This document shows positions 24,021 through 25,631 of a DNA stretch of 36,811 nt, piece after piece. Each line of letters starts with the position of its first letter. The stretch's first letter is position 1. The notes beneath the pieces were generated by a model. It was not told where the DNA came from. It worked only from the letters and a program-made list of their open reading frames with translations, and did not search any database. Origin of the DNA: Betaproteobacteria bacterium (GTDB lineage: Bacteria > Pseudomonadota > Gammaproteobacteria > Burkholderiales > SG8-41); contig CANJQI010000037.1 of assembly GCA_947476215.1 (NCBI GenBank), positions 1 through 36,811 on the forward strand, written 5' to 3'. Position numbers and translations under genes: made by a program.

Positions 24021-25631
24021 ATGATGGCGAGCAAGCTGTGGGTTCACGATCCGGTTGCGGCGCGCCATACCGCGCCACGCCAGTATCTGCATGTATTGGA
24101 CGGTCTCGCCGGCAAGGTCGTCGGGTTCATAGACAATGCCAAGCCCAATTTCCACGTGCTCGTAGACGATGTTGCCGATTTACTGGTCACCCGATACGGG
24201 GTTGCGTCCGTGATCAAGCATAGAAAAGGCGGGCAAGTTGCGGTCGACGAAGCAGTCATCGCGCGGTTTGCCGAGCAGTGCGATCTGGTTATTGCGGGAT
24301 CCGGCGACTGAGGATCGTGCACGTCGTGGAGTATCCACGACAGCGTAGAGGCGGCCAAGCGCGGGCTGGCTGCGATTACCGTATGCTCGACGGCTTTCAC
24401 GAGCCTGGGACGTGCGCAGGCGAAGGCGCGCAATTTTCCGGACTTGCCGATCGCAATCGTTCCTCATCCGTTTGGCACTTTGGGCCGCGATGAAACGCGC
24501 CGCGTGGCGGTGCAATGCGCGTGCGACATTGCTCGTCTGGCCTGTACCTCTGTTTCCCCGTTATCCGGGACGCCTGACCGCGTGGCATCCGAAAGCGGCC
24601 CGCGCCTCGTGGAAGTGCCGGAGGACATAGCTTTGTTCAACCGATTTTGCCTTGAGCAACGTTGGGGCGACGGACTGCCGCTGGTTCCCCCCACCGCGGA
24701 GCGTGTGTGCGAGATGCTGAAGCACACGCGCCGTGCGCCGCATGAGGTGGTTGCGACCATCGCACCGGCGCTGGGCCTCGCGACCGTCGAAGCCATTGCG
24801 ATCAACGCCGTGCTTGCGGGTTGCTATCCAGAGTATCTGCCGGTCTTGATTGCGGCTGCGGAAGCTGTCGCCGTTCCCGATTACAACCTGCCGAGCAATC
24901 AAACCACCACCAATCCGGCAGCCGTGTGGTTGATCGTGAATGGCCCGATAGCGCGCCGTCTGGGCGTCAACGGCGGCAATAATTGTCTGGGGCAGGGCAC
25001 GTGGGCGAACGCCACGCTGGGACGTGCATTGCGCTTGATATTGCAGAATATAGGCGGTGCATTTCCGGGCGACATGGATCGCGCGACGCAGGGCCAACCG
25101 GGCAAATACACGCTTTGCTGCGCGGAAAACGAAGAGGCAAACCCGTGGGAACCGCTGCATGTGGAGCGTGGTTTTGCGCGCGATGCCAGCACCGTGACGG
25201 TGGTCGGCCCGCTCGGCACGTGGAGCATCAACACGCATACCCGTACCGCCGATGATTTGCTGCGCGTGATCGGCGATACCATGGCATTTCCCGCCAGCAG
25301 CGATTACGCTTATGGCGGCGCGCCATGGCTGATATTCGCACCGGAGCACGCGCAGATACTCAAGCGCGCCGGATTGAGCAAGACTCAGGTGAAGCAGGGC
25401 TTGTGGGAGCGGTCGAAACTTGCGGTGAGCCGGCTGGCCGTTGAAGACATCGGGCATATGAAAAACGCGCGCGCCGGCGAACTGGGTGAAATCGGGCCGC
25501 AAACCCTGCTGCCGGTTTCTGTGCGGCCCGAAGACATCAACTTCATCGTTGCCGGCGGTGCCGGAACGCACTCCGTGTATCTGCCGAACACCGGGCATGG
25601 ACGCTCGGTGACATGCGAAATCAAGCCATAG
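24021..25631 (+). CDS. UGSC-motif selenoprotein with in-frame UGA = Sec at codon 97 (UGA 24309-24311), about 536 aa, ending at TAG
   Basis: ORF-track pieces 24015..24311 and 24444..25631 are in one frame; codons between the UGA and 24444 are open (GSCTSWSIHDSVEAAKRGLAAITVCSTAFTSLGRAQAKARNFPD). Reads ...CDLVIAGSGD-U-GSCTSWS...; a SECIS-like hairpin follows the UGA; a second copy with UGA at the same position is at 36478-36480. Confidence 0.92.
24309..24341 (+). promoter_or_regulatory. Bacterial SECIS-like element (UGA + hairpin)
   Basis: TGA(24309-24311), 5' arm GTCGTGG 24323-24329, loop AGTAT 24330-24334, 3' arm CCACGAC 24335-24341. Loop begins after 18 nt from UGA and has G as its second base. 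Confidence 0.82.

What the first reader, a model, noticed from the sequence alone, without database searches (positions are those of the whole stretch)
24309..24341. SECIS-like hairpin immediately after the UGA
GTCGTGG-AGTAT-CCACGAC forms a perfect 7-bp stem. The loop starts 18 nt after UGA and has G at its second position. As I recall it, the bacterial SECIS consensus places the apical loop about 16-37 nt from the UGA with a G in its first two bases, so this fits. TGA is an ordinary stop elsewhere in this window (trpG, trpD, anmK), so a local recoding signal is required.
Basis: partly seen in the sequence, partly recalled or inferred. Interest (0 to 1): 0.8.

Follow-up and report, generated by a model that had tools for sequence, protein, structure and literature searches.

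The report
Genuine selenocysteine hairpin, hugely repeated family
The small RNA hairpin just after an in-frame UGA is almost certainly a working bacterial signal for inserting selenocysteine, in a known but uncharacterised selenoprotein family (UGSC) of which this one bacterium carries about fifty copies, nearly all with a matching hairpin.

Summary
Confirmed. UGA 24309-24311 lies inside one open frame (24021-25631, +) encoding a UGSC-family selenoprotein (Pfam PF24696, 142.8 bits). The hairpin 24323-24341 is exactly as described; RNAfold adds one A-U pair (8 bp, GUA loop, -11.1 kcal/mol). It meets every constraint of the published bacterial SECIS model. It is not a by-product of the peptide. 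In 77 distinct UGA sequences from the host's family, stem third positions are nearly frozen while codons outside the stem vary. Doubly synonymous compensation occurs (ACG..GAC to ACA..GAT, 7 A-U and no A-C; TCG..CAC to TCA..CAT). None of 19 distinct Cys homologues keeps the stem, including three with the same downstream peptide. The genome has tRNA-Sec, selB, selA and a Sec-containing selD. The larger finding is that this 5.75-Mb genome carries about 50 intact UGA-containing UGSC genes (at most 73% identical), close to the largest whole bacterial selenoproteomes reported (57 and 63). They lie near TctC/Bug solute-receptor genes more often than random positions do (44 of 58 versus 30%). The hairpin and the protein are new members of known kinds; the expansion is the surprising part. 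The enzyme's reaction is unknown; weak Sec-site similarity to selenoprotein B/PrdB reductases is only a lead.

The parts
24309..24311 (+). in-frame UGA, read as selenocysteine (first residue of the UGSC motif)
   Evidence: only in-frame stop between 24015 and the TAG at 25629; the PF24696 match runs through it; Cys (TGY) at this position in homologues
24312..24322 (+). 11-nt spacer between UGA and stem
   Evidence: sequence
24323..24330 (+). bSECIS 5' arm GTCGTGG (+A)
   Evidence: RNAfold; covariation
   Evidence: a G-U at the loop start is kept in nearly all paralogues
24334..24341 (+). bSECIS 3' arm (T)CCACGAC
24021..25631 (+). UGSC-family selenoprotein gene, 536 aa with Sec; ATG at 24021 or 24024 behind GGGAG 24011-24015 (start inferred); stop TAG 25629-25631
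24042..24539 (+). UGSC domain (PF24696) with motif GD-U-GSC-TSWSIHDS
24588..25628 (+). C-terminal domain of about 350 aa with no Pfam match; confidently predicted fold, no convincing solved-structure relative
   Evidence: 3274 database homologues
35842..36612 (-). second, degenerate UGSC copy; only residues 64-285 of a 583-aa paralogue are matched
36478..36480 (-). in-frame UGA of the degenerate copy
36449..36466 (-). hairpin of the second subtype behind that UGA (ACCCGC-CGTGGT-GCGGGT)
22915..23928 (-). Bug/TctC-type solute receptor, divergent neighbour upstream
   Evidence: ORF; used as a seed of the Bug profile
26897..27877 (-). Bug/TctC-type solute receptor downstream
   Evidence: PF03401

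Best explanation
The hairpin at 24323-24341 is a bacterial SECIS element. After transcription the 8-bp stem presents a G-U apical loop 18-19 nt behind the UGA. SelB carrying Sec-tRNA(Sec) binds this loop, so the UGA entering the ribosomal A site is read as selenocysteine and not terminated. The product is a 536-residue two-domain UGSC-family selenoprotein in which Sec and Cys form a UxxC redox-type site. Shown here: the hairpin, its selection at RNA level, the family, and the complete Sec machinery. Inferred from established knowledge of bacterial Sec insertion: SelB binding and insertion. The chemistry of the protein is unknown; a selenol/thiol-based reductive step on a small imported solute is the most likely guess.
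For: All constraints of the bSECIS model are met. The stem is conserved in paralogues and host-family homologues with double-synonymous covariation: Thr/Ala third base with Asp third base is A-U 7, A-C 0, G-U 2, G-C 67 (Fisher p = 1.6e-8; own genome alone 4, 0, 1, 20, p = 4e-4), plus two TCA..CAT cases. Cys homologues lose it, including three Acidimicrobiia sequences with the same GSCTSWSVHD peptide. Other subtypes have a different stem sequence of similar shape, with their own compensation: GCC..CGG to TCC..AGG, and ACG..GC to ACA..GT. 50 of 54 UGA paralogues have a G-U-loop hairpin, versus 5.7% of control windows downstream in the same genes. tRNA-Sec, selB and selA lie on one contig, and selD with its own UGA on another.
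Against: The free energy of the single sequence is unremarkable against shuffles. No experiment shows readthrough. For the second subtype the per-gene synonymous null is mostly not significant (p about 0.1-0.2); covariation and position carry the case there. One paralogue (C121) scores poorly with a G-U loop. Homologous sequences are not independent, so the Fisher p-values overstate the evidence.
Confidence: 0.96

Rival explanations
1. The hairpin is a by-product of the conserved peptide T-S-W-S-I/V-H-D and has no RNA function.
For: The peptide itself dictates several stem bases (Trp TGG, CA of His, GA of Asp), and Cys homologues keep on average 5 of 8 pairs.
Against: Third positions in the stem are frozen or change in compensated pairs only in UGA genes; the loop codon is always AGT or TGT in this subtype; codons 1-2 after the UGA vary freely; Cys homologues with the same peptide break the stem. 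Synonymous recoding reaches the observed score with p = 0.008.
Confidence: 0.02
2. The UGA is a real stop or a decay/sequencing error, and the downstream 395-aa ORF (TTG 24444) is a separate or dead gene.
For: Public gene calls split the gene there: database relatives of the downstream part are about 376-455 aa long. The second copy in the window is degenerate.
Against: About 50 paralogues have the UGA at the same codon; the conserved domain continues through it and Cys homologues are continuous; sequence between UGA and 24444 is conserved at protein and RNA level.
Confidence: 0.01
3. The organism reads UGA as another amino acid generally (variant genetic code or suppressor tRNA).
For: UGA is read through in this frame.
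Against: TGA terminates ordinary genes in the window; homologues carry Cys at this position; a tRNA-Sec and the full Sec pathway are present.
Confidence: 0.01

Closest known systems
Bacterial SECIS (bSECIS) elements, consensus model as stated in PMC13188914
   Same: 3-9-nt loop, 4-16-bp stem, G in the first two loop bases followed by U, 16-37 nt from UGA, within the coding region
   Different: nothing essential; here about 50 near-uniform copies sit in one genome, in at least two unrelated stem sequences
UGSC-containing selenoprotein family (PMC2398784; Pfam PF24696; NCBIfam NF041046)
   Same: U-G-S-C motif, Pfam match at 142.8 bits, Sec position and flanks
   Different: fused to a C-terminal domain of about 350 aa without a Pfam model; 107.2 bits, below the 125-bit cut-off of the NCBIfam model; about 50 paralogues in one genome
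Selenoprotein B subunits of glycine/sarcosine/betaine reductase (GrdB, GrdF, GrdH) and D-proline reductase PrdB
   Same: UxxC site; weak profile matches that cover the Sec region in up to 15 of 41 members
   Different: scores far below family cut-offs (best E 8e-5, most 0.001-0.05); different length and partner genes

Membership tests
bSECIS element | apical loop 3-9 nt, stem 4-16 bp | tested here: met
   7 bp/5 nt or 8 bp/3 nt; model in PMC13188914
bSECIS element | G in one of the first two loop positions, mostly followed by G or U | tested here: met
   AGUAU or GUA
bSECIS element | 16-37 nt between UGA and apical loop | tested here: met
   18 or 19 nt
bSECIS element | MFE at or below -7.5 kcal/mol | tested here: met
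   -11.1 for the 19-mer, -18.1 for 24312-24362
bSECIS element | conserved in Sec genes, lost in Cys homologues | tested here: met
   76 of 77 versus 0 of 19 with all seven outer pairs
bSECIS element | binds SelB and drives UGA readthrough | not testable with these tools
   needs an experiment; selB is present
Sec-decoding organism | tRNA-Sec, SelA, SelB and SelD encoded | tested here: met
   L069:220-314, L069:3399-4880, L069:1387-3402, C41:26860-27789
UGSC family, Pfam PF24696 | score above the curated cut-off (25 bits) | tested here: met
   142.8 bits
UGSC family, NCBIfam NF041046 (equivalog) | score above the curated cut-off (125 bits) | tested here: not met
   107.2 bits; short paralogues such as L025 and L040 pass, so this long form is a family member in the Pfam sense only
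GrdB/PrdB selenoprotein B family | score above family cut-offs (TIGR01917, TIGR01918, TIGR04483) | tested here: not met
   13-17 bits against cut-offs of 65-602 for the members scanned singly; a lead only

The most novel reading that the evidence does not exclude
One Burkholderiales-like lineage has turned a single selenoprotein family into a large catabolic toolkit: about 50 divergent UGSC selenoenzymes per genome, related in their Sec site to selenoprotein B reductases, each tied to particular solutes brought in by neighbouring Bug/TctC receptors, and nearly all decoded through similar SECIS hairpins. This would make it a largely one-family, very large selenoproteome in an organism that carries a haem-copper oxidase.
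Probability: 0.3. Interest if true: 0.75.

Novelty: new member of a known kind. Interest (0 to 1): 0.5.

Why it matters
The hairpin is a textbook SECIS, but the genome offers a rare natural experiment: about 50 paralogous UGA sites decoded by one SelB, plus Cys homologues without the hairpin. The sequence rules of bacterial SECIS elements can be read directly from covariation. The selenium demand of this lineage, from one family of unknown function, comes close to the largest whole bacterial selenoproteomes on record; selenoprotein-rich organisms are mostly anaerobes (PMC13188914). Public databases hold thousands of these genes cut in two at the UGA, so the family is badly under-annotated.

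Tried and rejected
Rfam gave no relevant match. MAG strain mixing as the cause of the copy number was rejected: closest paralogues are 73% identical, contamination is 1.17%, and the 30-contig, 100%-complete relative G021 has 21 family matches. A class-wide pattern search found matches only in the own genome, because it drew few close relatives. Fold search of the 536-residue model (pLDDT 89.5) gave only generic Rossmann/P-loop-like or spurious long matches, and the sequence search of solved structures gave nothing useful, so the chemistry stays open. Papers on UGSC expansion: none found in the held library. Haft and Tolstoy 2025 (mSystems 10:e01417-24), which could bear on it, is not held. Pure coding constraint, a true stop, and a variant genetic code were considered and rejected (see rivals).

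Full report
What was checked. RNAfold adds an A-U pair, giving 8 bp and the triloop GUA at -11.1 kcal/mol. The UGA is the only in-frame stop before TAG 25629-25631. The frame encodes a UGSC-family protein: PF24696 at 142.8 bits against a cut-off of 25; NF041046 at 107.2 bits, below its cut-off of 125. The family is described as 'UGSC-containing' selenoproteins in ocean metagenomes (PMC2398784).

More than chance. One sequence alone is suggestive only: z = -0.95 against shuffles of the 51-nt segment, but only 0.26% of TGA triplets in 400 kb of this genome are followed by an equally good, correctly placed perfect stem. Synonymous recoding of the same codons gives p = 0.008. All four limits of the published bSECIS model are met (PMC13188914).

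Selection on the RNA. The host genome (5.75 Mb in 326 contigs, 98.5% complete, 1.2% contamination) has 58 PF24696 matches, 54 with one in-frame TGA. All 54 TGAs fall at the same U-G-x-C position apart from one decayed copy. Fifty of the 54 look intact. In the 25 paralogues of the window's subtype every base pair of the 8-bp stem is kept. Adding matches from the host's taxonomic family gives 77 distinct UGA 33-mers. Codons 1-2 after the UGA use all third bases (entropy 1.8-1.9 bits), while stem and loop third positions are almost fixed (0-0.5 bits). Where they change they mostly change together: Thr/Ala third base with Asp third base is G-C 67, A-U 7, G-U 2, A-C 0, C-C 1 (Fisher p = 1.6e-8 for the A/G cases). 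Ser third base with His third base gives G-C, G-U and one A-U, and a further A-U case appears in another family of the order. These are changes silent in the protein on both sides.

Natural control. A scan of public genomes for the Cys version of the motif gave 21 loci. L078 is out of frame and was left out; the other 20 give 19 distinct sequences. None of the 19 keeps the seven outer pairs. Three Acidimicrobiia-type sequences (L079, L088, L090) have the same peptide GSCTSWSVHD after Cys but write Val as GTG, which breaks the stem, and Ser as AGC, which removes the loop U. The peptide therefore does not force the hairpin.

Other subtypes. The TPAVLR subtype (about 590 aa) uses an unrelated stem, (G)CCCGC-CGTGTT-GCGGG(C), at nearly the same distance. 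One paralogue has CCCTC/GAGGG, and ACA..GT replaces ACG..GC in several genes, though A-C and T-C mismatches also occur. For this subtype per-gene synonymous tests are mostly not significant. Overall 50 of 54 UGA paralogues have a G-U-loop hairpin, against 5.7% of control windows downstream in the same genes.

Machinery. One contig (L069) carries tRNA-Sec(tca), selB and selA; selD, itself with an in-frame TGA, is on another. TGA ends ordinary genes in the window. The organism can therefore decode UGA as Sec and needs a local signal to do so.

The expansion. The closest paralogues are 73% identical, so they are not strain duplicates. Genomes searched from the same taxonomic family hold from 2 to about 31 matches, including 21 in a 30-contig assembly (G021). 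Outside that family and a few others of the order the domain is rare (20 of 200 genomes over the cut-off). The largest whole bacterial selenoproteomes reported are 57 and 63 genes (PMC13188914). Here one family alone gives about 50, plus SelD. The genome also has a haem-copper oxidase, so it is probably not a strict anaerobe (inference). I found no paper describing this expansion, but a possibly relevant one (Haft and Tolstoy 2025) could not be read.

What the protein may do. 44 of 58 UGSC genes lie within 1.5 kb of a Bug/TctC receptor gene, against 30% of random placements in control stretches (binomial p about 1e-12; control Bug density 0.125 per kb). Recurrent neighbours include CoA-transferase III, FAD enzymes, TauD-type dioxygenases, PGA_cap proteins, MFS and TPP enzymes. 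NCBIfam models of GrdB/GrdF/GrdH and PrdB give weak hits over the Sec region in up to 15 of 41 aligned members, far below cut-offs. My inference is that UGSC proteins are small-molecule catabolic enzymes whose Sec/Cys pair does a reductive or nucleophilic step on solutes taken up by Bug systems. The predicted structure is confident (mean pLDDT 89.5) but has no convincing solved relative.

Verdict. The element is a standard bSECIS in a known family; the copy number is what would surprise a specialist.

Noticed in passing
window 35842-36612 (-): A second UGSC copy with in-frame UGA (36478-36480) and a hairpin of the other subtype; only residues 64-285 of a paralogue are matched, so it looks like a decayed gene.
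   Followed up: partly
own genome; control stretches L107-L126: Bug/TctC receptor genes are extremely abundant (50 in 400 kb of stretches from contigs without UGSC genes, about 700 if extrapolated to the genome).
   Followed up: partly
L067:4001-4519, L068:4001-4372: Two UGSC-related proteins without Sec (motif region reads ALCNAGITQPT), possibly a non-redox offshoot of the family.
   Followed up: no
L127 (G498 contig 44): In a relative, two Sec UGSC genes flank a homologue with CGTSTS in place of UGSC: a Sec-to-Cys change next to Sec paralogues.
   Followed up: partly
database hits P0001-P0120: Thousands of public homologues are C-terminal fragments beginning after the UGA, where named mostly 'hypothetical protein': a systematic annotation error.
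   Followed up: no
C41:26860-27789 (L105): SelD of this genome itself has an in-frame TGA, so it is probably a selenoprotein too.
   Followed up: no
L069:434-1351 (-): A pyridine nucleotide-disulphide oxidoreductase sits between tRNA-Sec and selB in the sel cluster; a possible electron donor or selenium-metabolism enzyme.
   Followed up: no
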